Position numbers and translations under genes: made by a program
Part shown: positions 20,621 to 44,898 of the stretch, piece after piece
Numbering within the stretch: position 1 is the first letter of the stretch
Layout of the letters: each line of letters begins with the position of its first letter
Notes under the pieces: generated by a model
The model's input: only the letters and a program-made list of their open reading frames with translations
Database searches by the model: none
What the model was told of the DNA's origin: nothing
From: Nonomuraea rubra
Lineage (GTDB): Bacteria > Actinomycetota > Actinomycetes > Streptosporangiales > Streptosporangiaceae
Reading direction: 5' to 3'
Assembly: GCF_014207985.1 (NCBI RefSeq)
Contig: NZ_JACHMI010000001.1
Coordinates: forward strand, 5,749,001 to 5,813,000
DNA: 64,000 bases

Positions 20621-20658
20621 CGGTGCGGCTGCCTCGAGCCGGCGTGCCTTCGCCCCAT

Positions 20659-22764: not shown

Positions 22765-22828
22765 TTCCCCTGATCCCCCTCCGAACACCACGGCAAGTCC
22801 TACGCGTCCACAACAGGTGCGGCAGGGG

Positions 22829-25027: not shown

Positions 25028-26007
25028 CGGAGCCCTCCCAGCTCGTTGAGGATGCTCGTCAGCGCCCGCTGGACGAGCTCGACCTTGAACCTGTTCCCCT
25101 CGCGCGGCGCGGCGTCCGCGACCAGGAGCCGGCCCGCCTCGGCGATCGCCTGCGCGGTCAGCGGCCGGCCGCGCAGCGCGGCCTCGACGCGGGTGTCCCG
25201 CCACGGGCGGGTGCCCACCCCGCCGAACGCCAGCCGTACGTCCCGCACCACGCGCCCGCTGGTGCGCAGCGCGGCGGCCACCGACACCACCGCGAACTCG
25301 AACGTGGCCCGGTCGCGCAGCTTCAGGTAGCGCGACCGCCCGGCGAGGGCGGTACGCGGCACGTCCACCCGGGTGATCAGCTCGCCGGGGCGCATCGCGG
25401 TCTCCTGGTCCGGGGTGGCCCCGGGCAGGAGGTAGAAGCCGGCGATGGGGACGGCGCGCTCGCCGCCGGGGCCGAGCAGGTGCACGGTCGCGTCCAGGGC
25501 GGTCAGCGCCACCGCCAGGTCCGAGGGGTGCGTGGCGATGCAGGCGTCGCTGCCGCCGAGGATCGCGTGCCCGCGGTGGTGGCCGTTGATCGCCGGGCAG
25601 CCGCTGCCCGGCTCCCGCTTGTTGCACGGCGAGGCCGGGTCGCGGAAGTACCCGCACCTCGTACGCTGCAACAGGTTCCCGCCGATCGAGGCCATGTTGC
25701 GGACCTGCGGGGACGCCGAGGCCAGCAGCGCCTCCGACAGCATGGGGAACTCCCGCCGCACCCTGGAGTGCTCGGCGACCTGCCGCATCCGGGCCGCCGC
25801 GCCGACGCGCAGCCTCCTGGAGTCGAAGGCGACCTCGTCGAGGCCGAGGTGGTTGACGTCCACGAGCTGATCGTGGGCCTCCGCGCCGTCCCGCATGAGG
25901 TTCAGCAGATCGGTGCCGCCCGCCACGAACGTCGACGCGGGCGTGCTCGCGGCGACCCGCACGGCCTCGGCCGGGCTGCCCGCGACCGTGTAGCCGAAGG
26001 TTCTCAT
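25024..26007 (-). CDS. Xanthine dehydrogenase-family FAD-binding (medium) subunit
   Basis: A 327-residue subunit carrying the FAD that passes electrons from the Fe-S subunit. The FAD motifs are clear: TFVAGGTDLLNLMRDG near residue 27 and ASIGGNLLQRTRCGYFRD near 107. A Cys-rich insertion (CNKREPGSGCPAINGHHRG) follows, typical of the subgroup that may bind a [4Fe-4S] cluster. The C-terminal CODH-flavoprotein-like domain runs from about 225 to the end. It overlaps the genes on both sides by four bases. Confidence 0.92.
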   Translation of the reverse strand: MRTFGYTVAGSPAEAVRVAASTPASTFVAGGTDLLNLMRDGAEAHDQLVDVNHLGLDEVAFDSRRLRVGAAARMRQVAEHSRVRREFPMLSEALLASASPQVRNMASIGGNLLQRTRCGYFRDPASPCNKREPGSGCPAINGHHRGHAILGGSDACIATHPSDLAVALTALDATVHLLGPGGERAVPIAGFYLLPGATPDQETAMRPGELITRVDVPRTALAGRSRYLKLRDRATFEFAVVSVAAALRTSGRVVRDVRLAFGGVGTRPWRDTRVEAALRGRPLTAQAIAEAGRLLVADAAPREGNRFKVELVQRALTSILNELGGLR

Positions 26008-26984
26008 CGCCGCACCTCCTTCGCGGCGTCGGCGACGGCGGCGACGATGTTCTGGTACGCCGCGCACCGGCACAGATTCCCGCTCATCCACTCGCGGATC
26101 TCCGCCTCGGAACCCGTGTGCCCCTCGTCGATGCAGGCCACCGCGGACATGATCTGGCCGGGCGTGCACATCCCGCACTGGAAAGCGTCGTGCCGGATGA
26201 ACGCCTCCTGCACCGGGTGCAGCTCCTCGCCCCGCGCCAGCCCCTCCACTGTGGTGATCTCGGCCCCCTGCCGCATCACCGCCAGCGTCAGGCACGACTT
26301 GACCCGCTCGCCGTCGGCCAGCACCGTGCACGCCCCGCACTCACCCCGGTCGCAGCCCTTCTTGGTGCCGGTCAGGCCGAGCCGCTCGCGCAACGCGTCC
26401 AGCAGCGTCACCCTCGGCTCCAGGACGACCTTGCGCGCCTGCCCGTTGACCGTCAGAGCGACCTCCACCGACGCCCCGGGAGCGACGGCGAACGCCTGGG
26501 CGGTGGCGGCGGTCCGGGCGGCGGCTGGAGCTGCGCCGACGCCCGTCCCGGCCGCGGCCGTGCCCGCGGCGGTCACCGCGATGGCCTTGAGCACCGTGCG
26601 GCGGGTGTGCGCGGGCCTGTCAGGTAAGGGATCGTGTTCCACCGGGACCTCCAGGAGTCGTTGCCGCAGTTCGGTGATCTTCGCGCCCGCCTCCGGGTCC
26701 GGGTCGTCGGTCTCGATGGACGAGACGGCGTCCGCGACCAGCGGCAGCGCGATCTCGTCGGCGCGGCGGCGGGCGGGGTGCGTGAGGAACGCGCGGTAGC
26801 CGTCCAGGTCCTCGATCGCGAAGACGGCGGCCCACTCGTACTCGCCGGCGTGGTCGCGGCCGACGGCGAAGGATCTCACCGAGGGGATGGCCTTGCCCTG
26901 GTCACGCAGGCTCTTGAGAGCCTCCGTCCGCTGTCGCGGGGTCGTGTCCGCTCTGAAGGTGAACCGGCTGCCGTGATAGATCAT
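26004..26984 (-). CDS. Molybdenum hydroxylase [2Fe-2S] subunit fused in frame to an N-terminal Dabb domain
   Basis: One 326-codon frame holds two proteins. Residues 1-95 form a stress-responsive alpha/beta barrel (Dabb) domain, starting MIYHGSRFTFRADT. From about 115 there is a complete small subunit: Tat-type signal (HTRRTVLKAIAVTAAG), plant-type [2Fe-2S] domain (GCDRGECGACTV...SC) and the second [2Fe-2S] domain (QCGMC...LCRC). A Tat signal cannot work 125 residues into a protein. An in-frame GTG at 26642 with GGAGG five bases upstream would start the subunit exactly before that signal. The working Fe-S subunit is therefore probably the 212-residue product 26642-26004, and the Dabb gene has lost its stop. 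Confidence 0.85.
   Translation of the reverse strand: MIYHGSRFTFRADTTPRQRTEALKSLRDQGKAIPSVRSFAVGRDHAGEYEWAAVFAIEDLDGYRAFLTHPARRRADEIALPLVADAVSSIETDDPDPEAGAKITELRQRLLEVPVEHDPLPDRPAHTRRTVLKAIAVTAAGTAAAGTGVGAAPAAARTAATAQAFAVAPGASVEVALTVNGQARKVVLEPRVTLLDALRERLGLTGTKKGCDRGECGACTVLADGERVKSCLTLAVMRQGAEITTVEGLARGEELHPVQEAFIRHDAFQCGMCTPGQIMSAVACIDEGHTGSEAEIREWMSGNLCRCAAYQNIVAAVADAAKEVRR
26640..26652 (-). promoter_or_regulatory. Internal ribosome binding site and GTG start of the [2Fe-2S] subunit
   Basis: On the minus strand GGAGG (26652-26648) is followed after five bases by GTG (26642-26640). Translation from here gives MEHDPLPD and then the twin-arginine signal within 15 residues. This spacing is what an independent gene would have, and it decides the real start of the Fe-S subunit. 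Confidence 0.65.
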
Positions 26985-31730: not shown

Positions 31731-32789
31731 TCAAGCCACTCCGCGCGGAGGGGCTACGGTGCCGTCGAGCGTGTGGGTGCACGGCAGCAGGATCTGCCGC
31801 TCGTAGTCGCCGACCGGATCGGTGATCTGCGAGGTCAGGAGGCTGACCGCGCGGCGGCCCATGGCGTTGCGGGGGATGCGCAGCGTGGCGATCGGGTCGA
31901 GGCCCGACTCGCCTCCGGGGTCGTCCACGAGCAGCACCAGCGACAGGTCGCCCGGGATGTCGAGGTCGCGCAGCCTCGCCATGGCGGCCAGCACCCGGAC
32001 CAGGCTGACCGCCTCGACGAGGACGGCGGTGGCGCCGTCGCGCACGGCCCGGTCCAGCCACTGGGCGGTCAGGTCGTCGGGACGGGTGAACAGCGGCTCC
32101 GGCACGGGCAGCCCGAACCGCTCCAGGGCCGCGCGGAAGCCCTCCCACCGGTCGGTCTGCGGCTCGTCGCGCCTGGCCTCGCCGAGGTAGGCGAAGGTGC
32201 GGTGGCCCAGGCCGACCAGGTCGTCCACGATCCGGCCGGTGGCGGCGCGGTAGTCGCCGCCGACGTAGGAGATCTCCGTGCCGGGGACCTCGCGGTGGCC
32301 GATGTAGACGAACGGGTGCCGGTCGGCGGCCAGCCGGGTCAGGTCCTCCCGGTGGGTGTGGTGGCCGAGCAGCAGGCTGCCGTTGGCCTGGCGCAGCCCG
32401 TTCACCGAGCCGCTGTAGAGGCGGCGCACGCCGTCCTCGTCCGGGGCCGCGGTGAACAGGACGAGGTTGCAGCCCTCGATCCCCGCCTGCTCCTCGATGC
32501 CCTGAAGGAACTCGAAGTAGTAGTCCCTGGCGCTGGTCGGGAAGATCGGCTCGAAGGTGTGCACGCCGAGCAGCAGCGGCGCCTGCCGCGGGCCGCCCGC
32601 CGCGCGTTGCTGGCCGGCCGAGACGTACTTGAGCTGCCGGGCTGCTCTGAGCACCTTGCGCTGGGTCTCGGCCGAGATGCGGCCGAGGTCGCCCGAGCCG
32701 GTCAGCACCATCGAGACGGTCGACTGCGACACGCCGGCCTCCCGTGCGATGTCCGCCTGGCTGGGCCCTCTCCCCCTTGATCGCGACAT
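31731..32789 (-). CDS. LacI-family regulator of the adjacent glycan-utilisation locus
   Basis: A 352-residue repressor. The N-terminal HTH (QADIAREAGVSQSTVSMVLTGSGDLGRISAETQRKVL) with hinge helix is followed by a periplasmic-binding-like sugar-sensing domain of normal length. ATG at 32789 has the better upstream context; another ATG at 32804 lacks an RBS. It is divergent from the FAD oxidoreductase/GH38/ABC operon, so it almost certainly represses that operon until its oligosaccharide inducer arrives. Confidence 0.93.
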   Translation of the reverse strand: MSRSRGRGPSQADIAREAGVSQSTVSMVLTGSGDLGRISAETQRKVLRAARQLKYVSAGQQRAAGGPRQAPLLLGVHTFEPIFPTSARDYYFEFLQGIEEQAGIEGCNLVLFTAAPDEDGVRRLYSGSVNGLRQANGSLLLGHHTHREDLTRLAADRHPFVYIGHREVPGTEISYVGGDYRAATGRIVDDLVGLGHRTFAYLGEARRDEPQTDRWEGFRAALERFGLPVPEPLFTRPDDLTAQWLDRAVRDGATAVLVEAVSLVRVLAAMARLRDLDIPGDLSLVLLVDDPGGESGLDPIATLRIPRNAMGRRAVSLLTSQITDPVGDYERQILLPCTHTLDGTVAPPRGVA

Positions 32790-32853
32790 GCCCCGATTCT
32801 GCATCAGTAATAGCCGGACTGTCCAGTGCTGATATTTGCACTTCTATTAGCTA

Positions 32854-32882
32854 TTGACTCCCCGATTTGGACCCGGCTTAAC
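32854..32882 (+). promoter_or_regulatory. Candidate promoter of the glycan-utilisation operon
   Basis: TTGACT (32854-32859) and CTTAAC (32877-32882) are separated by 17 bases, in a stretch (32805-32930) clearly richer in A and T than the coding DNA around it. The start codon of the first enzyme gene is 49 bases after the -10 sequence. TAATAGC and ATTAGC-type repeats around 32807 and 32846 could belong to the LacI operator, but no clean palindrome was found. Confidence 0.4.
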
Positions 32883-32931
32883 ATGTGCGAAACCTAACAG
32901 GCCTGGCGAAGAGAAGGCTGAAAAATTAGCA

Positions 32932-34578
32932 ATGACTGAGCTGAATGTTGATCTGCTGGTGGTAGGTGGCGGGCTCGGGGGAGTGGCGGCCGCGCTGACG
33001 GCGGCCCGCCTGGGCCACCGGGTGCTGCTGACCGAGGAGACGGACTGGCTGGGCGGCCAGCTCACCGCGCAGGCCGTGCCGTCGGACGAGCATCCGTGGA
33101 TCGAGACGCCGCATGTTTCCTCGGGCTACCGGGAGTTGCGCAACCGCATCCGCGACTACTACCGGCGCAACTACCCGCTGCTGCCCGAGGTGGCGGCGCA
33201 GGAGGTGCTCAACCCCGGCCTGGGCAACGTGAGCAAGCTCTGCGTCGAGCCGCGGGTGGCGCTGGCGGCCCTGGAGGAGATGCTCATGCCGTACGTCTCC
33301 GCGGGCCGGATCACCGTGCTGCTCGACACCGTCCCCGTCGGCGCCGAGACCGACGGGGACCGGGTGACCTCCGTGACCCTGCGCGGCACCCGTACCGGCG
33401 AGCTGACCACGGTCACCGCCCCGCTGATCGCCGACGCCACCGAGCTGGGCGACCTGCTGGAGCTCACCGGCACCGAGCACGTCATCGGCGCGGAGTCCCA
33501 GGACGAGACCGGCGAGCCGTACGCCGCCCCGGTGGCCGACCCCACGGACCAGCAGGCGATCACCTGGTGCTTCCCGCTGGAGTACCGGCCGGGGGAGGAG
33601 CACGTCATCGACAAGCCCGCCTCCTACGACCACTGGAAGACCCACGCCGACCCCTTCTGGCCGGGCCCGCAGCTGTCCTGGGAGAAGATCGACATCCACA
33701 CCATGAAGGGCCGGGTCAACCGCATCTTCGAAGGCGACCTGGACGCCGTGAGCCTGGCCGACCTGTGGCACTTCCGCCGTATCCGGGCCCGTACCCAGTT
33801 CGACCGCGGCGTCATCGACACCGACATCACGCTGGTGAACTGGCCCAACATCGACTACTGGGAGGCGCCGCTGCTCGGCCCCGGCGCCGACCGGGAGAAG
33901 GCGCTGCAGCGGTGCAAGGAGCTGTCGCTGTCGTACCTGCACTGGATGCAGACCGAGGCGCCGCGGCCCGACGGCGGGCACGGCTACCCGGGCCTGCGGC
34001 TGCGTCCCGACCTGACCGGCACGGCGGACGGGATGGCGAAGGCCGCCTACATCCGCGAGTCGCGCCGCATCAAGGCCCGCTTCACGGTGCTGGAACAGCA
34101 CATCGCGGTCGTGGACCGCCCGGAGGGCGCGGGGGCCGAGCGGTTCGCCGACTCGGTGGGCGTCGGCCACTACAACATCGACCTGCACCCGAGCACGGCC
34201 GGCATCAACTACGTCAACCTGGAGGTCTACCCCTTCCAGCTCCCGCTGGGCGCGCTCGTCCCGGTCCGGATGCGCAACCTGCTGCCGGCCAACAAGAACA
34301 TCGGCACCACCCACATCACCAACGGCAGCTACCGGCTGCACCCGGTGGAGTGGAGCATCGGCGAGGCCGTCGGCGCGCTGTCGGCGCTCTGCCTGAACCG
34401 CGGCACCGAGCCGCACGCCGTGGCCGGCTCCCCGTCCCTGACAGAAGACCTGCAGCGGCTGCTCACCGGCACCCTCGGCGTCCCCGTGGCCTGGCCGGAG
34501 GAGATCGCCGTCATGCGCCCCTCCCAGGCCCGCAAGCACGCCACCCCCACCTACGTCCTGCCCGAGCGGCGCGCATGA
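32932..34578 (+). CDS. FAD-dependent oxidoreductase (FAD_oxidored family), first of a coupled pair
   Basis: A 548-residue flavoprotein. The ADP-binding motif VVGGGLGGVAAALTAARLGH is at residues 9-28, followed by LTEETDWLGGQLTAQAVPSDEH, characteristic of the PF12831-type FAD_oxidored family. The C-terminal part contains LLPANKNIGTTHITNGSYRLHPVEWSIGEA, the second cofactor-binding region. No signal peptide is seen, so it acts in the cytoplasm. Such proteins are frequent in carbohydrate-utilisation loci, but their reactions are poorly defined. The stop overlaps the next start (ATGA), giving coupled synthesis with the second flavoprotein. Confidence 0.88.
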   Translation: MTELNVDLLVVGGGLGGVAAALTAARLGHRVLLTEETDWLGGQLTAQAVPSDEHPWIETPHVSSGYRELRNRIRDYYRRNYPLLPEVAAQEVLNPGLGNVSKLCVEPRVALAALEEMLMPYVSAGRITVLLDTVPVGAETDGDRVTSVTLRGTRTGELTTVTAPLIADATELGDLLELTGTEHVIGAESQDETGEPYAAPVADPTDQQAITWCFPLEYRPGEEHVIDKPASYDHWKTHADPFWPGPQLSWEKIDIHTMKGRVNRIFEGDLDAVSLADLWHFRRIRARTQFDRGVIDTDITLVNWPNIDYWEAPLLGPGADREKALQRCKELSLSYLHWMQTEAPRPDGGHGYPGLRLRPDLTGTADGMAKAAYIRESRRIKARFTVLEQHIAVVDRPEGAGAERFADSVGVGHYNIDLHPSTAGINYVNLEVYPFQLPLGALVPVRMRNLLPANKNIGTTHITNGSYRLHPVEWSIGEAVGALSALCLNRGTEPHAVAGSPSLTEDLQRLLTGTLGVPVAWPEEIAVMRPSQARKHATPTYVLPERRA

Positions 34579-36092
34579 GCCCGCCCACGGAGCAGCACGA
34601 CGTTCTCATCTACGGCGCGACGCTCGCCGGCATCATGGCCGCGCTGCGGCTGCGCCTGCGCGGCCTGAGCAGCCTGATCCTGGAGCCGACCGGGCACGCC
34701 GGGGGCATCGTCGCCGGCGGGCTGGTCAAGAGCGACCCGCCGAACGTCATCGAGGCCCTGGCCGGGCTCACCCGCGACCGCTTCTTCCGCGGCATCGGCC
34801 ACGAGTACGGCGCCGCGGAGCCTCGCTACCGCTTCGAGCCCAAGGTCGCCGAGCGGGTCGCCCGGCGGCTGCTCGCCGAGGCGGGGGCGCAGGTGGTGAC
34901 CGGCGCCCGCATCCACGGCCCGGCCGACGTCGAGACGCGGGGCCGCCGCATCCAGGCGGTGCTCGGCCGGCGGGCCCGCTTCTTCATCGACGCCTCCTAC
35001 GAGGGCGACCTCATGGCGGCGGCCGGCGTGCCGTACACGTACGGGCGGGAACCGCGCTCCCGCTACGACGAGCCGTTCGCCGGCGTGCTGCCGCACCGGG
35101 CGCTGCGCCGCAGCGAGTTCGCGCCCAACGCCGGCTACCCGGTCGGCCCGCCCCCGGCCGAGCCGCCGGGCGAGGGCGACGCCAAGACGCAGGCGTACAA
35201 CTTCCGCGGCGTGTTGTCCAAGGCCGCCGACCGGCTGCCCTTCCCCAGGCCCGACGGGTACGACCCGGCCCTGTACGGCCTGCTCGGCCAGCTCATCACC
35301 CGGCGCGGCATCACCGGCCTGTCGGACATCGTCACGCATACGGCGTTGCTGCCGCCCGGCGACAAGTACCAGACCAACCAGGCCCTGTTCATCGGCTTCG
35401 ACCTGCCGGGCGCGTCGTGGGACTACCCGGACGGCACCTGGGCCAGGCGCGAGGAGGTCATAGCCGAGCACGTGCGCTGGCACCAGGGCATGCTCTACTG
35501 GCTGGCCAACGACCCGTCGCTGCCGGAGTCGTTCCGCGCCGACACGCGCACCTTCGGGCTGCCGGCCGACGAGTTCGCCGACAGCCCGTACGGCGCCGGC
35601 TTCCCGCACGCCCTGTACGTCCGCGAGGGCCGCCGCCTGATCGGCCAGTACGTCCTCACCCAGCACGACCTGCGCATCCCCGGCAACACGAAGGCCACCC
35701 CGGTGTGCTGCTGGAAGTACGGCATCGACTGCCACATCGTCCAGCTCTACCCGGAGGGGGAGCACACGATCGCGGGGGAGGGGCCGCCCAGCGGCACCGA
35801 GTACAACGAGCCGGCCGACCTCTACCAGATCCCCGCCGAGTGCCTGTTCCCCGCCCGCGGCGGCATCGAGAACGTGGCCGTGCCCGTCTGCTTCTCCGCC
35901 AGCCACGTCGCCTGCCTGTCGGCCCGCATGGAGCCGAACTACGGCATGCTCGGCGAGGCCGCCGGCGAGCTGGCCGCCCAGTCCCTGCGCACCGGGCGGG
36001 CCGTGCAGGACTACCGCTACCCCGACCTGGCCGCCGCCCTGGAAGAGCACGGCAGCGTGCTCTCCCTGCCCGGCCTGGAGCCCGCGCCATGA
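34575..36092 (+). CDS. FAD-dependent oxidoreductase (FAD_oxidored family), second of a coupled pair
   Basis: A 505-residue flavoprotein with the variant dinucleotide motif LIYGATLAGIMAALRLRLRG (GxTxxG rather than GxGxxG), typical of one branch of FAD_oxidored proteins found beside glycosidases. GGIVAGGLVKSD, FIDASYEGDLMAAAGVPYTYGRE, and the C-terminal VCFSASHVACLSARMEPNYGMLGEAAG complete the family signature. No export signal. It overlaps the genes on both sides by four bases. A paired flavoprotein/glycosidase system suggests oxidation at a sugar hydroxyl as part of glycan breakdown; this is inference. Confidence 0.87.
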   Translation: MSPPTEQHDVLIYGATLAGIMAALRLRLRGLSSLILEPTGHAGGIVAGGLVKSDPPNVIEALAGLTRDRFFRGIGHEYGAAEPRYRFEPKVAERVARRLLAEAGAQVVTGARIHGPADVETRGRRIQAVLGRRARFFIDASYEGDLMAAAGVPYTYGREPRSRYDEPFAGVLPHRALRRSEFAPNAGYPVGPPPAEPPGEGDAKTQAYNFRGVLSKAADRLPFPRPDGYDPALYGLLGQLITRRGITGLSDIVTHTALLPPGDKYQTNQALFIGFDLPGASWDYPDGTWARREEVIAEHVRWHQGMLYWLANDPSLPESFRADTRTFGLPADEFADSPYGAGFPHALYVREGRRLIGQYVLTQHDLRIPGNTKATPVCCWKYGIDCHIVQLYPEGEHTIAGEGPPSGTEYNEPADLYQIPAECLFPARGGIENVAVPVCFSASHVACLSARMEPNYGMLGEAAGELAAQSLRTGRAVQDYRYPDLAAALEEHGSVLSLPGLEPAP

Positions 36093-39000
36093 TTCCCGAC
36101 CCGCCGTTCCAGCCAGGACCGCTCGACGCCGCCGCCGGCCGGCGGCCGCACCGGATCGAGCTGCCGCTGCACGCGGGGGAGCCCCGCGAGCGGTGGTCGC
36201 TGCGGCTGGAGTTCACCGCCGGGCACGGCCCCTGCCCCGACCTGGAGCTCGAGATCGACGGCGCGTACCGGGGGCTGGTCCACCCCGAGGTGCGGCGCGA
36301 GGACCGCGCAGAGGTCTACCGGCACGGCCCCATCGCCGGCGAGGTACGGCTGGACGTGCCGATCCCCGGTTCCATGCTCCCGCCAGGAGAGCACGTCCTG
36401 GCCATCACCACGACCCTGGACCGCGAGGCCGCCACCGGCCCCGTCACGATCCCCGGGCCGGGGCCGGCCCGGCACCGCGAGCAGTTCGGGCACCACTTCG
36501 GCAGCGGCCTCACCTGGCGCTCCATCACGCTCGAACCCGCGACCGCGCCGCCGCCCGGGCCCGTGCTGCGCGTCACGCCGCTCTACCTGCACGACGGCCG
36601 CGAGCTGGCCGAGCTCACCGTGCCGCTGCCCGCCCGCCGCGCGCAGGTGCGCCTCGCCGGCCGTACCCACGCCTTCGACCTGCCCGGACGGGACTTCGGC
36701 CAGGCCCGCGTACGCTTCCCCGTTCCCGAGGCGCGCGGCCCGGCCGAGGTGACGGTGGACGGCGGCGACCCCGTGACGTTCACCCTCACCCCCGCCCGCA
36801 AGTGGACGCTGCACCTCATCCCGCACGTGCACCTCGACGTCGGCTACACCGACACCCAGGGCAAGGTGCTGGAGCTGCACAGCCGCAACCTCGACCGCGC
36901 GGTGGCCGCCCTGGACCGCGACCCCGGCTTCGCCTTCTCCGTGGACGGCTCGCTGGTGCTGGCCCAGTACCTTGCCACCCGCTCGGACAAGAGCGCCGGG
37001 CGCGTGCTCCAGGCGCTGCGGGACGGCCGCATCGCGGTCAACGCCTTCCACAGCCTCTTCCTGTCGGGGGTGGCCTCGCTGGAGGAGATCTACCGGGCGG
37101 CCTACCTGGCGGCGCGGCTGCGCGACGAGCACGGCGTGCCCGTCACGTACGCCAACCTCACCGACGTGCCCTCCTACAGCGCGGCCCTGCCCTCGATCCT
37201 GGCCGCGCTCGGCATCGGCGGCTTCGTCGGCATCGAGAACCACCACCGCGGCGGCAACGCCGACAGCGACCTGCAGCACCTGCTCAGCCCCGTCATGTGG
37301 GAGGGCGTGGACGGCTCACGCGTGCTCACGCACTTCTCCGACACCTACTCGCAGTTGCGGTTCATGGTGGGCGACCCGCAGACCGTCGAAGGCGGCGCCC
37401 ACTCCCTGTGCCGCCTGCTGGCCCGCTACGAACGTCCCGACTATCTGCCGCACGACCTGGCGATCATCGGCACCCACGCCGACAACGAGGACCTCGTCGA
37501 CGGCGACGCCGGCTTCGCCGCCCGCTGGAACGCCGTCTACGCCCACCCCCGCATCGTCGTCTCCACGATGGCCGGTTACCTGGACGCGGTCCGCCCCCTG
37601 GCCGACCGGCTGCCGGTGTGGCACGGCGACGGCGGCAGCTACTGGGAGGACGGCGTCGGCACCGGCGCCACCGTGGTCGCCGAGCACCGGCGGGCGCAGA
37701 GCGCGCTGCCCGCCGCCGAGGGGCTGGCCGCCCTGGTCGCGCGGGCCGAACCGGCCTACCGCCCGCACCGGGAGGCGCTGGACGCCGCCTGGGAGGGCGC
37801 GCTGTTCGGCGCCGAGCACACCTGGACCTGGTCGCACGCGCTCGCCCACCCCCACGGCGAGCAGGTCGGCGACCAGCTCGACTGGAAGCGCCACCAGGTG
37901 CACACCGCCCTGCGCACCGCCGTGGACGAGGGCCGCCGGGCGCTGAGCCAGCTCGGCGAGCTGGTCACCACCCGGGGCCCGGCGCTGCTCGTGCACAACC
38001 CGCTGAGCTGGACGCGAGACGTGGAGGTCGAGTACGAGTCCACCGCGCCGCCTCCGCAGCCCGCTGAGGTGCTGTCCGACTGCGCCGGCCTGCGCCGCTA
38101 CCGGATGACGGTGTCCGGCGTGCCCGCCTTCGGCTACCGCACGATCCCGCTGCCCGACCCGGCCGCGCTCGCGCCGGGTGAGGAGGACGGCCGCCGCGCC
38201 ACCCGGCGCTCTCCCGAGGAGGACTGGCAGCCGGTGCCGCCGCGCCTGCTCACCCCCCGATGGGAGGCCGCGCTCGACCCCGGGACCGGCGCGCTGCTCG
38301 CCCTCACCCACCGGCCCACCGGCCGCCCGCTGCTCGACGGCCCCCTCGGCCAGGTCCTCTACGTCCGCAACGGCCCCTCCACCCGCGTCGTCACCGGGCA
38401 CAGCGGCGAGCCGCACCACCACCCGCCCGCCCCTCGAACCTCCCTGGACGGCCGCCGCCCGCACGCCGGCCCGCCCGGCCTCGACGTCTTCCCGGCGGCC
38501 ATGCGCCCCGTCGGGCTGCGCCGCACGTACGACGGCTGGCGCCTGCGGGCGGTGGGCAGCGCGCCCAGCCTGCCGCACGTCGAGGTGGACATCCTGCTCA
38601 GGGACGCCGACGACCGCGTGGACGTGCTGGTGCGCCTGGAGAAGGAGCGGGAACCCGCCAAGGAGTCGGTCTACGTCGCCTTCCCGTTCGCGCACGAGCA
38701 GCCCCGCTTCCGCTACGACCGCCAGCAGGGCTGGATCGACCCCGCCGCCGACCACGCCCCCGGCGCATGCCAGGAGTGGTTCACCACCCAGCACGGCGTC
38801 GTCGTCGCCTCCCCGTCCGGCGCCGTGGCGTGGACCTCGGCCGACGCGCCGCTGTTCACCGCCGGGGACATCGTGCGCGGCGCCTGGCCAGAACGCTTCG
38901 CCCCCGCGAGCGGCGCACTCTACTCGTGGGTCATGAACAACTACTGGCCCACCAACACCCCACCCGAGCAGGACGGCACGCTGACCCTCCGCTACGCCTT

Positions 39001-39367
39001 CCGCCCCCTGCCCGCCTTCGACCCGGTGGCCGCCGGCCGGCTGGGCCGCGAGGTCCGCGCCGCGCCCATGGTGTCGGAGGTGACCAGGCTCGACAAGTTC
39101 GACACCGGGCCCCGCCCGCTCGACGCCCCCGCCGGTAGCCTGCTCGACCTCGGCCTGCCCGGCTGGGCCGCCGCGACCGTCGCCGAGCCGCGCGACCGCA
39201 CCGGACTGCTCGTCCGCCTCCAGGACCTGTCGGGCCAGGGCGGCGAGATACGCCCGCGCCACCCCGGCCGGATCGTCCTGTGCCGTGCCGACGAGACGGA
39301 GGTCGGCGAGCTCGACGGCTCCGTCCGCCTCGGCCCCTGGGCCGTCATCACCCTCAAGCTCCTCTAG
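36089..39367 (+). CDS. Glycoside hydrolase family 38-type enzyme (alpha-mannosidase-like)
   Basis: A 1092-residue protein without a signal peptide. Residues 1-235 form a beta-rich N-terminal region. The GH38 domain begins with HLIPHVHLDVGYTDTQ (about 238-253), which holds the zinc-binding His/Asp. A conserved Asp in NLTDVPSYS (about 357) is in the place of the nucleophile region, and AEHTWTWSHALAHP (about 579-592) provides a further zinc His. The rest is the GH38 C-terminal beta domain. Standard alpha-mannosidases have a PDPFGHS-like motif around the nucleophile; here it differs, so specificity may be unusual. It overlaps the flavoprotein gene and precedes the transporter genes. Confidence 0.82.
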   Translation: MIPDPPFQPGPLDAAAGRRPHRIELPLHAGEPRERWSLRLEFTAGHGPCPDLELEIDGAYRGLVHPEVRREDRAEVYRHGPIAGEVRLDVPIPGSMLPPGEHVLAITTTLDREAATGPVTIPGPGPARHREQFGHHFGSGLTWRSITLEPATAPPPGPVLRVTPLYLHDGRELAELTVPLPARRAQVRLAGRTHAFDLPGRDFGQARVRFPVPEARGPAEVTVDGGDPVTFTLTPARKWTLHLIPHVHLDVGYTDTQGKVLELHSRNLDRAVAALDRDPGFAFSVDGSLVLAQYLATRSDKSAGRVLQALRDGRIAVNAFHSLFLSGVASLEEIYRAAYLAARLRDEHGVPVTYANLTDVPSYSAALPSILAALGIGGFVGIENHHRGGNADSDLQHLLSPVMWEGVDGSRVLTHFSDTYSQLRFMVGDPQTVEGGAHSLCRLLARYERPDYLPHDLAIIGTHADNEDLVDGDAGFAARWNAVYAHPRIVVSTMAGYLDAVRPLADRLPVWHGDGGSYWEDGVGTGATVVAEHRRAQSALPAAEGLAALVARAEPAYRPHREALDAAWEGALFGAEHTWTWSHALAHPHGEQVGDQLDWKRHQVHTALRTAVDEGRRALSQLGELVTTRGPALLVHNPLSWTRDVEVEYESTAPPPQPAEVLSDCAGLRRYRMTVSGVPAFGYRTIPLPDPAALAPGEEDGRRATRRSPEEDWQPVPPRLLTPRWEAALDPGTGALLALTHRPTGRPLLDGPLGQVLYVRNGPSTRVVTGHSGEPHHHPPAPRTSLDGRRPHAGPPGLDVFPAAMRPVGLRRTYDGWRLRAVGSAPSLPHVEVDILLRDADDRVDVLVRLEKEREPAKESVYVAFPFAHEQPRFRYDRQQGWIDPAADHAPGACQEWFTTQHGVVVASPSGAVAWTSADAPLFTAGDIVRGAWPERFAPASGALYSWVMNNYWPTNTPPEQDGTLTLRYAFRPLPAFDPVAAGRLGREVRAAPMVSEVTRLDKFDTGPRPLDAPAGSLLDLGLPGWAAATVAEPRDRTGLLVRLQDLSGQGGEIRPRHPGRIVLCRADETEVGELDGSVRLGPWAVITLKLL

Positions 39368-39391
39368 GACTTCTCCAGGAAAGGAAAGGCC

Positions 39392-40999
39392 ATGTCTGAC
39401 GCGCGTCACAGCAGGCGCCAGTTCCTCCAGCTCACCGGGAGCACCGCTCTGCTGGCCGCCTCGGGCGGCCTGCTGACGGCGTGCGGCCCGTCCTCACCCC
39501 AGGCGAGCCCGCAGGCCGGGACCCGCAAGGCGGTCATGCCCGCGTACGTCCCGTCCGGCCTCGTCAAACCCGACCTGCCGGCCACCGCCGAGGGCGTGCT
39601 GGCCGCCTACTACTCCTACCCCGCCGAGCCCGTCACCGCCTTCACCGGCAAGCCCGGCGAAGGGCTGGGCGAGGTGAAGGTGCTGACCAACATGTTCAAC
39701 CCGGTGCCACCCGGCCCGGACGCCAACCGGTTCTGGCAGGAGCTGAACACCCGGCTCGGCGCCACGCTGAACGTCACCATGGCGCCCGGCGTGCCCGCGT
39801 CCGCCTACGTGAGCAAGCTGTCCACCGTCATCGCCAGCGGCGACCTGCCCGACATCCTCATGTTGTCTGCCACCCTGGCCAACCGCTCGCAGATCCTCAC
39901 CCGCCTGTGCGCCGACCTCAGCGACCTCGTCTCCGGCGACGCCGTCAAGAGCTACCCGTTCCTCGCCAACATCCCGCGCGACTCCTGGCTGGCCACCGCC
40001 TACCAGGGCGGTGTCTACGCCATTCCCATCCCGCGCGCCATCGTCGGCACGATCATGTTCGCCCGCTCCGACCTCATCGCCGAACGCGGCCTGAGCGGCG
40101 AGCTCAAGAGCTACGACGACTTCCTCGCCCTGGCCAGGGGCCTGACCGACCCGGCGAAGAACCGGTGGGCCTTCGGCAGCGCCAAGGGCGTCATCACGTA
40201 CGTCGGCACCATGCTCGGCGTCCCCAACACGTGGGCCGAGCAGGGCGGCAGGTTCACCTCGGAGCACGAGGCGGAGGGCCGCAAGGAGGCCATCGCCAGG
40301 ACCGCCGAGATGGTCAAGGCCGGCCTGTTCCACCCCGACGCCATCGGCGGCAAGCTCAACCTGCGCGACCTGTTCGGCAACGGCACCATCGCGCTCAACT
40401 CCGACGGCTACGCCGCCTGGGACATCCTCGCCGACACCTACAAGGTGGACGTCGGCGCGCTGGTCTCACCGGGCCCCGCCCGCGCGGGACAGGCGCACTT
40501 CGCCATCACCGCGTTCAAGAAGGCCGGCCGCGACCGCCTGGCCAAGCTCCTGCGCGTCTGCGACTGGCTGAGCGCGCCGCTCGGCACGAGCGAGTACATG
40601 TTCCGCAAGTTCGGCGTCGAGGGCACCCACTACACGATGAAGGACGGCGCGCCCGAGCCGACCAGCCTCGGCAAGGCCGAGGTCAAGCTCCCCCTGGAGT
40701 ACGTCGCCGACGCCCCCCACGTGCTCGGCCCCCGCCCCCGCGAGCGGGTGGACGCGCAACGCGCCTACCAGGAGCGCGTCGTGCCCGCGATCGTCCGCAA
40801 CCCGGCCGCCGCCCTCTACTCCGACACCGCCGTCAACAAGGGCGGCACCCTCACCAAGATCATTGACCAGGCCGAGCTGGACATCGTCTCCGGCCGCAAG
40901 CCCGTCAGCCACTGGGACGAGGTCGTCAAGCAGTGGCGCGCCCAGGGCGGCGACCAGATCCGCCGCGACTACGAGACCGCGCTGGCCAAGGGCGACTGA
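39392..40999 (+). CDS. Sugar ABC transporter substrate-binding lipoprotein (LplA-like)
   Basis: A 535-residue extracytoplasmic binding protein. The N terminus has both a twin-arginine motif (SRRQFLQLTG) and a lipobox (LLTAC near residue 31), so it is a Tat lipoprotein. The body is that of large solute-binding proteins of the LplA group that serve oligosaccharide importers: MFNPVPPGPDANRFWQELN, VIASGDLPDILMLS, RSDLIAERGL. A strong GGAAAGGAAAGG precedes the ATG. It captures the oligosaccharide for the two permeases downstream. Confidence 0.92.
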   Translation: MSDARHSRRQFLQLTGSTALLAASGGLLTACGPSSPQASPQAGTRKAVMPAYVPSGLVKPDLPATAEGVLAAYYSYPAEPVTAFTGKPGEGLGEVKVLTNMFNPVPPGPDANRFWQELNTRLGATLNVTMAPGVPASAYVSKLSTVIASGDLPDILMLSATLANRSQILTRLCADLSDLVSGDAVKSYPFLANIPRDSWLATAYQGGVYAIPIPRAIVGTIMFARSDLIAERGLSGELKSYDDFLALARGLTDPAKNRWAFGSAKGVITYVGTMLGVPNTWAEQGGRFTSEHEAEGRKEAIARTAEMVKAGLFHPDAIGGKLNLRDLFGNGTIALNSDGYAAWDILADTYKVDVGALVSPGPARAGQAHFAITAFKKAGRDRLAKLLRVCDWLSAPLGTSEYMFRKFGVEGTHYTMKDGAPEPTSLGKAEVKLPLEYVADAPHVLGPRPRERVDAQRAYQERVVPAIVRNPAAALYSDTAVNKGGTLTKIIDQAELDIVSGRKPVSHWDEVVKQWRAQGGDQIRRDYETALAKGD

Positions 41000-41002
41000 G
41001 CG

Positions 41003-41968
41003 ATGGCACTCGACGTGAAATCCCCGCCCGCGCGCCCGGCCGCCCCGCCGCGGCGCGCCACCCCGAAGGTCTCCCGGCTGCGCAGGGACGGGCTGCTGCT
41101 CCTGCTCGGCGTCCCGGGCCTGCTCGTGATCCTGCTGTTCCACTACGTGCCGATGCTCGGCAACGTGATCGCCTTCAAGGACTACCAGCCCTTCCTGGGC
41201 ATCTGGGAGGCGCCGTGGACCGGCTTCGAGAACTTCCGGGTGATCTTCAACGGTGACCCGGAGTTCCTGAACGCGCTGGTCAACACGGTCGTCATCTCGC
41301 TCGTGCAGATCGTCTTCGTCTTCCCCGTGCCGATCGCGCTGGCGTTGCTGCTCAACTCCCTGGCCGGGGTGCGGCTCAAGCGGCTGGCCCAGTCGATCCT
41401 CTACCTGCCGCACTTCATGTCGTGGGTGGTCGTCGTCGCGATCTTCCAGCACATGCTGGGCAACGCGGGCCTGCTGAACACGTTCCTGCGCGGGCACGAC
41501 CTGGCCACGCTGCCGCTCCTGGGCAACCCCGACCTGTTCCTGGCCCTGATCACCTCGCAGGTGATCTGGAAGGACGCCGGCTGGGGCACGATCATCTTCC
41601 TGGCCGCGCTTTCCCGCGTCGATCCCGAGCTGTACGAGGCCAGCGCCATGGACGGCGCCTCCAAGACCCGCCAGCTCTGGCACGTGACGCTGCCCGGCAT
41701 CCGCGGCGTGATCGTGCTGATGCTCATCCTCAAGCTCGGCGACGTGCTCACCGTCGGGTTCGAGCAGATCATCCTGCAGCAGGGCATGGTCGGCACCGAG
41801 GTGTCGGAGGTGCTGGACACCTACGTCTACACCTACGGCGTCGTCGGCGGCAGCTGGGGCGTGGCCGCCGCGGTCGGCCTGGTCAAGGGCCTGGTCGGGC
41901 TGGTGCTCGTGCTCGGCGCCAACAAGGTCGCGCACCTGCTGGGCGAGAGAGGGCTCTACACCAAATGA
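41003..41968 (+). CDS. Sugar ABC transporter permease (LplB-like)
   Basis: A 321-residue membrane protein with six helices after a Pro-rich cytoplasmic start. MLGNVIAFKDYQPFLG and the EAA loop EASAMDGASKTRQLWHVTLPG (about residues 212-232) identify a CUT1-type permease. It starts three bases after the binding-protein stop and overlaps the second permease (ATGA). No ATPase gene is in the operon, so ATP hydrolysis is presumably supplied by a shared MsiK-type ATPase encoded elsewhere. Confidence 0.93.
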   Translation: MALDVKSPPARPAAPPRRATPKVSRLRRDGLLLLLGVPGLLVILLFHYVPMLGNVIAFKDYQPFLGIWEAPWTGFENFRVIFNGDPEFLNALVNTVVISLVQIVFVFPVPIALALLLNSLAGVRLKRLAQSILYLPHFMSWVVVVAIFQHMLGNAGLLNTFLRGHDLATLPLLGNPDLFLALITSQVIWKDAGWGTIIFLAALSRVDPELYEASAMDGASKTRQLWHVTLPGIRGVIVLMLILKLGDVLTVGFEQIILQQGMVGTEVSEVLDTYVYTYGVVGGSWGVAAAVGLVKGLVGLVLVLGANKVAHLLGERGLYTK

Positions 41969-42819
41969 TCGTTCGTACGCTCAAGGGCGCGGTCGTGGCC
42001 GCCTGCTGCGCCCTGGTGATCCTGCCGTTCCTCGCGGTCCTGTCCACCAGCCTGGCCGACCAGGCGCAGGTCACCGCCACCGGCGGCTACGTGCTGTGGC
42101 CGGAGCGGCCCAGCCTCGACGCCTACCGGGCCATCCTGGCCGGCGGGGTCGTCACCCGGGCGCTGCTGGTGTCCGTCGGCGTCACCGTCGTCGGGACGCT
42201 GCTGTCCCTGACGTGCATCACGCTGCTGGCGTACTCGCTGAGCCGGCCGGGCTCGCTGCTGCACCGCCCGATCCTGCTGACCGTGCTGTTCACGCTGCTG
42301 TTCGCGCCCGGCATGATCCCGATGTACCTGACGGTCAAGCAGCTCGGGCTGCTGGACTCGTACTGGTCGCTCATCCTGCCGGGGCTGGCCGGCGGGTTCC
42401 AGATCATCATCATGCGGGCCTTCTTCCAGGAGATCCCGGGTGAGCTGGTCGACGCTGCCCGCATCGACGGCGCCGGCGAGCTGCGCATCCTGCTCCGGGT
42501 CGTGCTGCCGCTGTCGAAGGCGGTCATCGCCGTCGTCGGGCTCTTCAGCGCGGTCGCGTACTGGAACGCGTTCTTCAACGCCATGCTCTACCTCAACGAC
42601 ACCGAGAAGTGGCCGCTGCAACTGGTCCTGCGCACGTACGTGGTCGACAACAGCGCGCTCAGCGTCGACGCGGCGGATCTGTCGGGCAGCTTCCTGCCCC
42701 CTCCCCAGTCCATGCAGATGGCGATCCTGGTGCTGAGCCTGGTTCCCATCGCGATCGTCTACCCGTTCCTCCAGAAGCACTTTGCCAAGGGCATCCTCAT
42801 CGGCGCGGTGAAAGGCTGA
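41965..42819 (+). CDS. Sugar ABC transporter permease (YtcP/LplC-like)
   Basis: A 284-residue membrane protein with six helices. FAPGMIPMYLTVKQLGLLDSYWSLILPG and the EAA loop DAARIDGAGELRILLRVVLPLSK (about residues 163-185) are diagnostic. It pairs with the upstream permease to form the membrane channel. Its stop lies three bases before the beta-helix protein gene. Confidence 0.93.
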   Translation: MIVRTLKGAVVAACCALVILPFLAVLSTSLADQAQVTATGGYVLWPERPSLDAYRAILAGGVVTRALLVSVGVTVVGTLLSLTCITLLAYSLSRPGSLLHRPILLTVLFTLLFAPGMIPMYLTVKQLGLLDSYWSLILPGLAGGFQIIIMRAFFQEIPGELVDAARIDGAGELRILLRVVLPLSKAVIAVVGLFSAVAYWNAFFNAMLYLNDTEKWPLQLVLRTYVVDNSALSVDAADLSGSFLPPPQSMQMAILVLSLVPIAIVYPFLQKHFAKGILIGAVKG

Positions 42820-42822
42820 CAC

Positions 42823-44898
42823 ATGAAGATCAACGAGGACCGCCGTCGGATCCTGTCGGCGTTAGGCGCGGGCGGCGCGGCCGCCATGGCGCTGAGCACC
42901 GGCCCCGCGCAGGCCGCCAAGCGCGACGTCCGGCAGATCGCCGGCGTCACGGACCTGCGCCAGACCCCCGGCCAGCAGGGGGAGCAGATCTACCTGCTCG
43001 GCTACTACCAGGCCGAGCCCGGCGTGACGGCCACCCCCGGCCGCGGCGGCGGCGACCTGTACTGGGACGAGACGAGCACCGAGCCCGACGACGGCGGCAC
43101 CGTCTTCGCCGTCGCCGGCGTGGCCACCGGCCGGTGGAAGCGGCCCGTCGCCACCACCGTGGACCTCGCCTGGTACGGCTGGCGCGGCACCGGAGCCGAC
43201 GACGACACCCAGCGCCTGCAGAACGCCGTCAACGCCCTGCCCGCCGGCGGCACCATCGAGATCGGCCCCGGCAAGGTGCTCATCAAGAGGACGATCTCGG
43301 TCAAGCGCGTGCCCATCACCTTCGACGGCGCCGGCCACACCGACAGCCTGGACCACGGCACCCAGCTCCTGCTCGAGACCGGGACCGCCGACGGCTTCCT
43401 GCTGACCGGCGTGCACGGCGGCGGCTTCCGCAACCTGCAGATCCGCGGCCTGGGGCTGAAGGGCGGTGCGATGATCCGCACCGAGCGGGCGGGGGCGGCC
43501 AAGGAGGACGGCAACTACATGCTGGCCTTCACCAACGCCCGCTTCCGCGACGGCCACAACGGGCTCGTGCTGCGGGCCTGCAACACGGTCAGGTTCCAGA
43601 ACTGCGTCTGGAACACCTTCACCGGCGACCAGGTGATCCTGCTCAACGGCGTCGCCGACGACCAGCGTGCCGACCCGGTCGAGTTCGTGCAGTGCGGCAT
43701 CGCCGCGGGCAGCGGCAACAAGGTCACCGACAACGTGGTCATCGACGGGCTCGGCGGATCCATCAAGTTCATCGCGACCGCCATCCTGTTCGGGCGGCAC
43801 GGGCTCTGGATGCGCAACACCACCGGCACCAAGGCGCTGCCGAAGTTCGTCTACTTCGAGGGCGGCGGCTTCGAGAACGGCCACGGCGTGCCCGTCCTGC
43901 TGGAGGCGGGGGCGCAGGCCCAGTTCGCCAACACCTACATCTCCGCCGACGGCGAGTTCGACAACGTACGGGTCGGCCCCGAGTTCGTCGGCGGGGTCAC
44001 CTTCACCGGCTGCGTCATCCGCGGCGCGGGCCGCAACGGCATCGACGTCGCCTCCGCCCGGACCACCGTGACCGGCTGCCTGATCGGCAACAACGGCCGG
44101 ATGGCGCACCCCGACTTCGCCCGGCAGATCAGCGCCGTGGACGGCAACGGCGCGGGCGGCGTCCGCGTCACCACCTCCGCCCCGCACGGCTGGGAGAGCG
44201 ACGACCGCGTCACCGTCACCGGGATCACCGGCCTGGACCGCGCCTGGACGATCCAGGTGGTCAGCGAGACGGCCTTCGACCTCGAGGGCGCCGAACCCGG
44301 CACGTACGCGGGCACCGGCCAGGTCTACAGGCACGGTGCCGGCATCAACATCCGCGCGCAGGCCACCCGCGTGGTGGTCACCGGCAACGCCATCGGCGGC
44401 TTCACCGGCGACGGCGTCAACCGGCAGGACTACGGCATCGTCAGCGCCTCGCCCGACGTGCTCATCAGCGGCAACGACCTCAACGGAAACCACGCGGGCG
44501 CGTACGCGCTGACCGGCGCGCAGACCGCGCAGACCCGCGCCACCGGCAACAAGGGCGTCCAGCAGATCGACGGCTGGCTGACCGCGCGCATCGACGGCGC
44601 CGTCGCCGACGGCCTGCACGACCTGTCCAACCTGCTGTACGCCGATGGCCAGCGGCTCCGCATCGTCCGGGTCGCCAGGAAGCTCGGCGCGGGGACCTGC
44701 CAGGTGCGCCTGGACGCCGACGGCGACAGCGCCGGAGGACCGGCGACCGCCGCCACCACGACCTTCCAGAGCACGACGCTCACCTCGCCGTACGTGGTGG
44801 ACGGCACCTCGGCCGCCAAGCGCCTCCAGGTACGCGTCCTGGGCAGCTCCGGAGCCGGCGGGCTGGTCGTGCAGTTCGGATACCAGGTGATCGCCTGA
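42823..44898 (+). CDS. Exported right-handed beta-helix protein (pectate-lyase-like fold)
   Basis: A 691-residue protein with a Tat signal (EDRRRILSALGAGGAAAMALS then AQAA). The core from about 115 to 580 has the short imperfect repeats with Asn ladders of a beta-helix (VTGCLIGNNGR, VVTGNAIGGFTGDG, VLISGNDLNGNHAG). The segment starting WYGWRGTGADDDTQRLQNAVNAL is the usual pectate-lyase-like opening. The C terminus is a small beta domain. It is the last gene of the LacI-controlled operon and probably cuts or binds the polysaccharide outside the cell. The exact enzyme class cannot be assigned. Confidence 0.85.
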   Translation: MKINEDRRRILSALGAGGAAAMALSTGPAQAAKRDVRQIAGVTDLRQTPGQQGEQIYLLGYYQAEPGVTATPGRGGGDLYWDETSTEPDDGGTVFAVAGVATGRWKRPVATTVDLAWYGWRGTGADDDTQRLQNAVNALPAGGTIEIGPGKVLIKRTISVKRVPITFDGAGHTDSLDHGTQLLLETGTADGFLLTGVHGGGFRNLQIRGLGLKGGAMIRTERAGAAKEDGNYMLAFTNARFRDGHNGLVLRACNTVRFQNCVWNTFTGDQVILLNGVADDQRADPVEFVQCGIAAGSGNKVTDNVVIDGLGGSIKFIATAILFGRHGLWMRNTTGTKALPKFVYFEGGGFENGHGVPVLLEAGAQAQFANTYISADGEFDNVRVGPEFVGGVTFTGCVIRGAGRNGIDVASARTTVTGCLIGNNGRMAHPDFARQISAVDGNGAGGVRVTTSAPHGWESDDRVTVTGITGLDRAWTIQVVSETAFDLEGAEPGTYAGTGQVYRHGAGINIRAQATRVVVTGNAIGGFTGDGVNRQDYGIVSASPDVLISGNDLNGNHAGAYALTGAQTAQTRATGNKGVQQIDGWLTARIDGAVADGLHDLSNLLYADGQRLRIVRVARKLGAGTCQVRLDADGDSAGGPATAATTTFQSTTLTSPYVVDGTSAAKRLQVRVLGSSGAGGLVVQFGYQVIA

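What the first reader, a model, noticed from the sequence alone, without database searches (positions are those of the whole stretch)
31731..44898. LacI-controlled glycan-utilisation locus with two coupled FAD oxidoreductases, a GH38 enzyme and a beta-helix protein
Two different FAD_oxidored proteins and a large GH38-type glycosidase are translationally coupled by four-base overlaps, followed by an LplA/LplB/YtcP importer and a Tat-exported beta-helix protein. Hydrolysis alone would not need two flavoenzymes. A plausible idea is oxidation of a sugar hydroxyl to ease cleavage of an unusual linkage, as in keto-sugar-based deglycosylation. No such role is proven for these families.
Basis: partly seen in the sequence, partly recalled or inferred. 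Interest (0 to 1): 0.75.

Follow-up and report, generated by a model that had tools for sequence, protein, structure and literature searches.

The report
Glycan operon with unassigned flavoenzymes
A soil bacterium carries a tightly regulated gene set, shared with distant relatives, that seems to import and dismantle an unidentified sugar chain with the help of two or three oxidation enzymes whose job nobody has yet shown.

Summary
LacI, two PF12831 flavoproteins (FAD1, FAD2), a GH38-like enzyme, an LplA/LplB/YtcP importer and a Tat-type beta-helix protein lie as described, with ATGA overlaps. It is a conserved unit: FAD1-FAD2-GH38 occur together in 13 of 17 genomes found to carry this GH38 type. 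In 10 of those 13 there is a third flavoprotein, FAD3, absent in the window's genus. A LacI-type operator, GCWRATATYWGC, occurs once in the 12.9-Mb genome, in front of FAD1. The helper idea (flavoproteins prime the substrate for GH38) is weakened: in 8 of 11 readable plasmid contexts FAD1 homologues are the only recognised catabolic enzyme beside a sugar importer, and GH38 orthologues occur without them. My reading: each flavoprotein is a stand-alone, importer-linked enzyme that oxidises a sugar hydroxyl of the imported oligosaccharide and so opens a bond that GH38 does not. I found no tested activity in print for this branch of PF12831; substrate and reaction are inferred. The boldest reading still open is that they are flavin-dependent glycosidases.

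The parts
31731..32804 (-). LacI-family repressor, divergent from the operon
   Evidence: Pfam LacI and Peripla_BP_3; orthologue beside FAD1 or FAD3 in 11 of 11 related loci with FAD1
32828..32839 (.). GCTGATATTTGC, predicted LacI operator between LacI and FAD1
   Evidence: GCWRATATYWGC occurs once in the 12.9-Mb genome; exact match in 8 of 13 orthologous divergent spacers, reversed control 0 of 13. The motif was read off these same spacers, so the 8 of 13 is partly circular; the single genomic site is not
32932..34578 (+). FAD1, PF12831 flavoprotein, 548 aa, no signal peptide by eye
   Evidence: 100 invariant positions in 16 family members from 5 phyla
34575..36092 (+). FAD2, second PF12831 flavoprotein, 505 aa, overlaps FAD1 by ATGA
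   Evidence: own clade 100/100
36089..39367 (+). GH38-like enzyme, 1092 aa, no signal peptide by eye; His248, Asp250, Asp359 and His577 align with GH38 metal/nucleophile residues
   Evidence: these residues are identical in 15 of 15 aligned rows
39392..40999 (+). LplA-like solute-binding lipoprotein with twin-arginine signal
   Evidence: SBP_bac_1; RRQFL and LLTAC lipobox
41003..41968 (+). LplB-like permease
   Evidence: BPD_transp_1
41965..42819 (+). YtcP-like permease, overlaps LplB by 4 bases
   Evidence: BPD_transp_1
42823..44898 (+). exported right-handed beta-helix protein, 691 aa, probably extracellular
   Evidence: Beta_helix; its profile matches the first part of a tail fiber protein (5w5p) and of a particle-associated glycoside hydrolase (6c72) in the PDB

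Best explanation
This is a LacI-repressed operon for one imported, probably O-acylated, oligosaccharide. Outside the cell the beta-helix protein (and in some relatives an SGNH esterase) trims a glycan; the LplA lipoprotein and LplB/YtcP take up the fragment; inside, FAD1, FAD2 (and FAD3 in relatives) and the GH38-like enzyme take it apart as parallel, separable steps. Each flavoprotein oxidises a hydroxyl of a particular sugar residue with FAD and thereby opens or converts a bond that GH38 does not handle; they are not helpers of GH38. Shown here: gene content, conservation, co-inheritance, a single operator-like site, the importer link, and an intact GH38 site by alignment. Inferred: sugar as substrate of the flavoproteins, cytoplasmic order of steps, oxidation chemistry. 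The glycan is unknown.
For: Trio in 13 of 17 genomes with this GH38 type, FAD3 in 10 of the 13. Distances of the genes correlate. One operator-like site in the genome. PF12831 homologues sit by CUT1 sugar importers: 8 of 11 readable plasmid contexts of FAD1, 7 of 12 actinobacterial contexts, 5 of 5 places in the own genome within 8 kb of a permease against 10.5% of the genome. FAD1 and FAD2/3 share a non-cofactor core Y-x-R-E-x-R-R ... D-x-H ... H-x6-R, so probably one chemistry on different substrates. SGNH esterase gene between GH38 and LplA in Jiangella and Glycomyces. Elsewhere the flavoproteins lie among glycosidases: GH2-FAD1-GH1-GH5; a GH5-like protein, below Pfam's cut-off, overlapping FAD1; a FAD3-like protein with GH84 and GH38. 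Published neighbour: a xanthan region with ABC genes, FAD-dependent oxidoreductase, LacI and GH38 (PMC12772297).
Against: No enzyme activity was found in print for this branch of PF12831. No structure of a full-length relative: PDB profile hits shown cover only short stretches, mostly the FAD-binding start (best 60 of 124 shown in 52), and both AlphaFold models are mediocre (mean pLDDT 68.7 and 72.5) with TM-scores under 0.4 in the 50 rows shown, so the active site could not be read. No dedicated enzyme for a keto-sugar product is in the operon. Not all contexts have a sugar importer: 1 of 11 plasmid contexts shows none and one an MFS transporter; 5 of 12 actinobacterial stretches show none (two of these stretches end at a contig end).
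Confidence: 0.45

Rival explanations
1. Ordinary sugar or polyol dehydrogenases/oxidases: the flavoproteins act only on released monosaccharides, sugar acids or polyols and turn them into common metabolites; all bond cleavage is by GH38 and the extracellular protein.
For: Minimal modules LacI + CUT1 importer + FAD1 in Deinococcota, Streptomyces and Alphaproteobacteria look like polyol or monosaccharide operons; nearby Gfo/Idh, ThuA or sugar-phosphate isomerase genes in a few contexts.
Against: In the window the importer is of the LplA/LplB/YtcP type (recalled as an oligosaccharide importer) and the flavoproteins are coupled to a glycosidase gene; no kinase, isomerase or reductase for a product is among the eight proteins.
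Confidence: 0.27
2. One reading: a flavoprotein oxidises a residue and the GH38-like enzyme then cleaves the oxidised substrate, so the steps are obligately coupled.
For: ATGA overlaps and correlated distances of FAD1, FAD2 and GH38 (r 0.88-0.92).
Against: FAD1 homologues without GH38 in most contexts read; GH38 orthologues without flavoproteins in the flanks of 4 of 17 genomes, three of them with an importer of their own nearby.
Confidence: 0.1
3. The flavoproteins act on something other than sugar hydroxyls, for example an aromatic, sulfated or acyl group attached to the glycan.
For: Sulfate transporter genes beside two FAD1 homologues (own genome L023; Thalassospira); Foldseek neighbours include monooxygenases and succinate-dehydrogenase-like folds (weak).
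Against: The link is to CUT1 sugar importers and LacI regulators in 8 of 11 plasmid contexts; I noticed sulfate genes in only 2 contexts.
Confidence: 0.15

Closest known systems
FAD-GO / GlycDH glycoside 3-oxidoreductase systems (Rhizobium sp. GIN611, Agrobacterium; PMC4650693 and PMC10628242, passages read)
   Same: bacterial flavoenzymes that attack a sugar hydroxyl of a glycoside so that the bond opens (proposed by analogy here)
   Different: those are GMC-family enzymes with a catalytic His493 and, in Agrobacterium, partner eliminase, putative hydratase and Gfo reductase; here PF12831, no GMC domain, no such partners
Xanthan utilisation region of Paenarthrobacter ilicis 6C (PMC12772297, passages and section 15 read)
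   Same: ABC permeases, binding protein, FAD-dependent oxidoreductase, LacI and GH38 side by side; the pathway section gives the flavoprotein no role and leaves the glucuronate-removing enzyme unknown
   Different: has PL8, GH9 and GH3, absent here; whether its flavoprotein belongs with FAD1, FAD2 or FAD3 was not tested; the related Microbacterium XT11 region as listed there has no flavoprotein
Levoglucosan and C-glycoside oxidation-elimination pathways (PMC7676230, PMC10646112, starts of abstracts in search listings only)
   Same: redox route to break a glycosidic bond
   Different: different enzyme families and a set of partner enzymes
GH38 alpha-mannosidases (PDB 7ufs, 2wyh)
   Same: GH38N domain and aligned metal and nucleophile residues
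   Different: 1092 aa with about 240 residues before the GH38N domain; no GH38 middle or C-terminal Pfam domain detected; very distant (34.8 bits to the nearest solved structure)

Membership tests
PF12831 FAD_oxidored | full-length match above the curated cut-off | tested here: met
   341 and 248 bits against 27, over profile positions 1-415 and 1-416 of 416
GMC / AA3 glycoside 3-oxidase (FAD-GO, GlycDH) | GMC oxidoreductase domain | tested here: not met
   no GMC Pfam family at E<=0.001 in FAD1 or FAD2
Keto-sugar deglycosylation operon | eliminase and hydratase of sugar-phosphate-isomerase type plus Gfo/Idh reductase in the operon | tested here: not met
   none among the 8 proteins scanned; the two kinds of extra gene scanned in relatives are an esterase and a GxGYxYP protein
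Keto-sugar deglycosylation operon | 3-keto-glycoside formed by the oxidoreductase | not testable with these tools
   needs purified enzyme
NAD-dependent redox glycosidases (GH4, GH109 type) | their catalytic domains in the operon | tested here: not met
   no such Pfam domain in the 8 proteins at E<=0.001
Glycoside hydrolase family 38 | GH38N domain with the metal-binding His, Asp, Asp, His | tested here: met
   78 bits; His248, Asp250, Asp359, His577 aligned and identical in 15 of 15 rows; which GH38 residues these are is recalled
Glycoside hydrolase family 38 | GH38 middle and C-terminal domains | tested here: not met
   no PF09261 or PF07748 hit at E<=0.001, whereas another GH38 at L067 shows all three domains
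Xanthan utilisation region | PL8, GH9 and GH3 enzymes | tested here: not met
   absent from the operon
LacI-controlled CUT1 sugar-import operon | LacI regulator, SBP_bac_1 protein and two BPD permeases with a LacI-type operator | tested here: met
   binding of LacI to the site is not tested

The most novel reading that the evidence does not exclude
FAD1, FAD2 and FAD3 are flavin-dependent glycosidases in their own right: the FAD transiently oxidises a sugar hydroxyl, the aglycone leaves by elimination, water adds, and the same flavin gives the electrons back, so no outside acceptor or partner enzyme is needed. They would be the flavin counterpart of the NAD-dependent GH4 mechanism and the unrecognised depolymerising enzymes of importer operons that appear to lack a hydrolase. 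Pointers: FAD1 as the only recognised catabolic enzyme beside LacI and an importer in 8 of 11 contexts; a SusC-SusD-FAD1 cluster in a Parabacteroides record whose FAD1 carries a twin-arginine-like lipoprotein signal, in what is by common knowledge an anaerobe; and a xanthan region where a glycosidase is missing and a flavoprotein has no role.
Probability: 0.17. Interest if true: 0.85.

Novelty: new variant of a known kind. Interest (0 to 1): 0.52.

Why it matters
FAD1-type PF12831 flavoproteins turn up next to sugar importers and glycosidases from Actinomycetota to Deinococcota, Alphaproteobacteria and Bacteroidota, yet I found no tested activity for this branch. A compact operon with its own repressor, two or three of them and one hydrolase is a clean place to find out what they do. 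If they cut glycans, importer operons that seem to lack a hydrolase would gain one, and a flavin version of redox glycoside cleavage outside the GMC family would be established.

Tried and rejected
Structure: AlphaFold models of FAD1 (14-row alignment, mean pLDDT 68.7) and FAD2 (19 rows, 72.5) were too weak to read an active site; Foldseek matched FAD-domain folds with TM-scores below 0.4 in the 50 rows shown. VIA-align was not available.

Sequence search of the PDB showed no full-length relative of FAD1 or FAD2/3. NCBIfam gave no family above its cut-off for the flavoproteins among those shown.

Sulfate link (sulfate transporters beside two FAD1 homologues) was considered and set aside: 2 contexts only. 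Xanthan as substrate was considered: rejected as an assignment because PL8, GH9 and GH3 are missing, kept as the nearest published neighbour. That FAD3 of the window genome had moved elsewhere was considered: the best own-genome candidate is only 43-45% identical to two FAD3 proteins and sits in another locus also seen in other species of the genus, so FAD3 is taken as lost.

The unknown ~800-aa genes divergent from LacI in two Streptomyces minimal modules, and small genes in three other modules, have no Pfam match; one of them could be an unrecognised glycosidase, which would weaken the 'only enzyme' argument. The plasmid gene tables are also incomplete by the tool's own statement.

Phylum samples score only two or three candidates per genome, so absence there is not proof.
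Full report
Observation. Pfam confirms PF12831 for both flavoproteins, GH38N for the large enzyme, SBP_bac_1 and two BPD permeases, a weak beta-helix match and LacI. The GH38-like protein keeps the residues that align with the GH38 metal site and nucleophile, identical in 15 of 15 aligned rows, but shows no GH38 middle or C-terminal domain.

Conservation. In the window's genus 3 of 54 genomes, the window's included, carry this GH38 type, and 3 of 53 carry FAD2 at 94% identity or more. A scan of the genome-contig collection with the GH38 protein returned 29 loci; 16 of them (L038-L053), from 15 genomes (L050 and L053 are one genome), match at 49-95% identity, the other 13 at 22-31%. FAD1 and FAD2 lie upstream of GH38 in 11 of these 15 genomes; Streptomyces L047-L049 and Acidimicrobiaceae L052 (a 9.6-kb contig) lack them in the fetched flanks. 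With the window and genome G002 this is 13 of 17. L038 and G010 are taken as one genome because contig length and positions agree. Hosts of the trio: Thermocatellispora, Jiangella, Hamadaea, Glycomyces, Micromonospora, Streptomyces, [Actinomadura] parvosata. In an even sample of the phylum 0 of 395 other genomes had the GH38 type at E<=1e-35, 2 of 395 had a FAD2 relative at E<=1e-60 and these only at 38-40% identity, and 12 of 395 had a FAD1 homologue at E<=1e-90. So the unit is rare and patchy but travels together: across 11 loci, pairwise distances of LacI, FAD1, FAD2, FAD3, GH38, LplA and LplB correlate with r 0.73-0.95 (55 pairs, 36 where FAD3 is involved). Shared descent of the hosts alone could give part of this.

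A third flavoprotein. In 10 of the 13 loci a FAD3 gene (37-40% identical to FAD2 in the 8 aligned) lies between LacI and FAD1 and runs with LacI, in 4 loci overlapping it by 4 bases. It is missing in the three loci of the window's genus. FAD1, FAD2 and FAD3 each form one clade with 100/100 support among the rows tested (8 of the 10 FAD3, 11 FAD2, 17 FAD1-family rows). Jiangella and Glycomyces add about 1.2 kb between GH38 and LplA (4 loci); the protein there, read in two loci, is an exported SGNH/GDSL hydrolase (Pfam on the Jiangella one). Streptomyces radicis has a GxGYxYP putative glycoside hydrolase after GH38. The beta-helix gene is found in 10 of the 13 loci; in 2 of the other 3 the contig ends first.

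Regulation. GCWRATATYWGC, a motif read off the divergent spacers, is found once in the 12.9-Mb genome, at window 32828-32839 between LacI and FAD1; the reversed control pattern is absent. In the window itself the search with up to one mismatch found only this site against 0.29 expected, and 27 of 100 shuffles had at least one match, so the window alone proves little. Exact matches lie in the divergent spacer in 8 of 13 orthologous loci and nowhere else in those stretches; the reversed control has 0 of 13. The other five show looser forms by eye.

What the flavoproteins are linked to. FAD1-family matches were found in 51 plasmid records, 37 of them over at least 80% of the length. I opened 12 contexts, picked for variety, not at random; one has no annotation. 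Of the other 11, eight are LacI + binding protein + two CUT1 permeases + FAD1 (Deinococcus x2, Allomeiothermus, Streptomyces x2, Thalassospira, Rhizobium, Sinorhizobium), one is sigma factor-FecR-SusC-SusD-FAD1 (Parabacteroides), one has an MFS transporter (Rhodococcus), one no importer (Mesobacillus). None of the eight shows an annotated glycosidase in the operon, though two have an unknown ~800-aa divergent gene without Pfam match, one a GH13 gene about 4 kb away, and two an SGNH hydrolase beside LacI. Of 12 actinobacterial contexts, 7 show both permeases nearby; one of these is GH2-FAD1-aldo/keto reductase-GH1-GH5-importer (the reductase name is by eye). In the own genome the 5 PF12831-type places found by similarity to FAD1 or FAD2 all lie within 8 kb of one of 86 permease places, which cover 10.5% of the genome at that distance; three of the 5 were scanned with Pfam, the other two are 57-60% identical to FAD1. 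Two further short, weak matches (L005, L007) were not counted. As the five are homologues, the product of chances is only a guide. FAD2/FAD3 relatives: a TonB receptor next to one in Sphingobium; Gfo/Idh, ThuA, sugar-phosphate isomerase and GH97 genes near one in Haladaptatus; one Pararhizobium context without sugar genes; one in the own genome with GH84, ROK kinase and a GH38 with all three domains.

Chemistry. FAD1 (16 proteins) has 100 invariant positions and FAD2/3 (22 proteins) 56; aligned together they share, besides the FAD site, Tyr373/348, Arg375/350, Glu376/351, Arg378/353, Arg379/354, Asp417/385, His419/387, His461/444 and Arg468/451 (FAD1/FAD2 numbering, all but at most two of 38 rows). 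This suggests one chemistry on different substrates. The PDB shows no full-length relative by sequence and the models are too weak to place these residues. The Parabacteroides FAD1 begins with MKRRDFL and has a lipobox-like LVTAC, which I read as Tat export of a folded flavoprotein.

Comparison with what is known. Flavin-initiated glycoside cleavage has been shown for a GMC enzyme (PMC4650693, passages), with eliminase, putative hydratase and Gfo partners in Agrobacterium (PMC10628242, passages). None is present here. The nearest published locus that I found is the xanthan region of Paenarthrobacter ilicis, with ABC genes, a FAD-dependent oxidoreductase, LacI and GH38 (PMC12772297, passages); its authors leave the glucuronate-removing enzyme unknown and the model section names no role for the flavoprotein (section 15). 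The related Microbacterium XT11 region, as listed there, has no flavoprotein and is also said to lack a GH88 enzyme, which counts against the flavoprotein being that missing enzyme. My searches for a tested PF12831 function beside glycan genes found none; most subscription papers are not in that library.

Verdict. The locus and its spread are solid. The helper reading for GH38 is unlikely; a stand-alone, importer-linked sugar-oxidising role is the best supported (0.45). Flavin-dependent glycosidase activity is not excluded (0.17) and would be important.

Noticed in passing
window 26004-26984 (-): One open frame runs from a Dabb-like stretch through an apparent twin-arginine signal into a 2Fe-2S xanthine-dehydrogenase-type subunit; either an odd fusion or a start codon further in. 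Names by eye, no Pfam run.
   Followed up: no
window 20662-22791 (-): 710-aa ATPase-like regulator (by eye) with a run ATAFATAFATAFATAF and His/Thr-rich stretches; GC skew of 20001-22000 is 0.29, the highest in the window.
   Followed up: partly
L079 (NZ_OY725752.1): A record called plasmid 7 of Parabacteroides distasonis carries dnaA and ribosomal protein genes, so it is probably a chromosome fragment.
   Followed up: no
L023 7183-8712 and L075 12471-18013: Sulfate transporter genes lie beside two FAD1 homologues in unrelated bacteria.
   Followed up: no
L067 7719-9425; L024 14764-16617; L074 5313-7691; L082 3294-5702: Large proteins without any Pfam match next to PF12831 flavoproteins and importers; candidates for new glycan-active families.
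   Followed up: partly
L045 and L051: Streptomyces versions are rearranged: LplA lies between FAD3 and FAD1, and importer permease genes lie beyond LacI on the other strand.
   Followed up: no
L047, L048, L049: Three Streptomyces have the GH38 orthologue (55-56% identity) without flavoproteins, with an importer nearby; in L047 a GH2 gene lies between them.
   Followed up: partly
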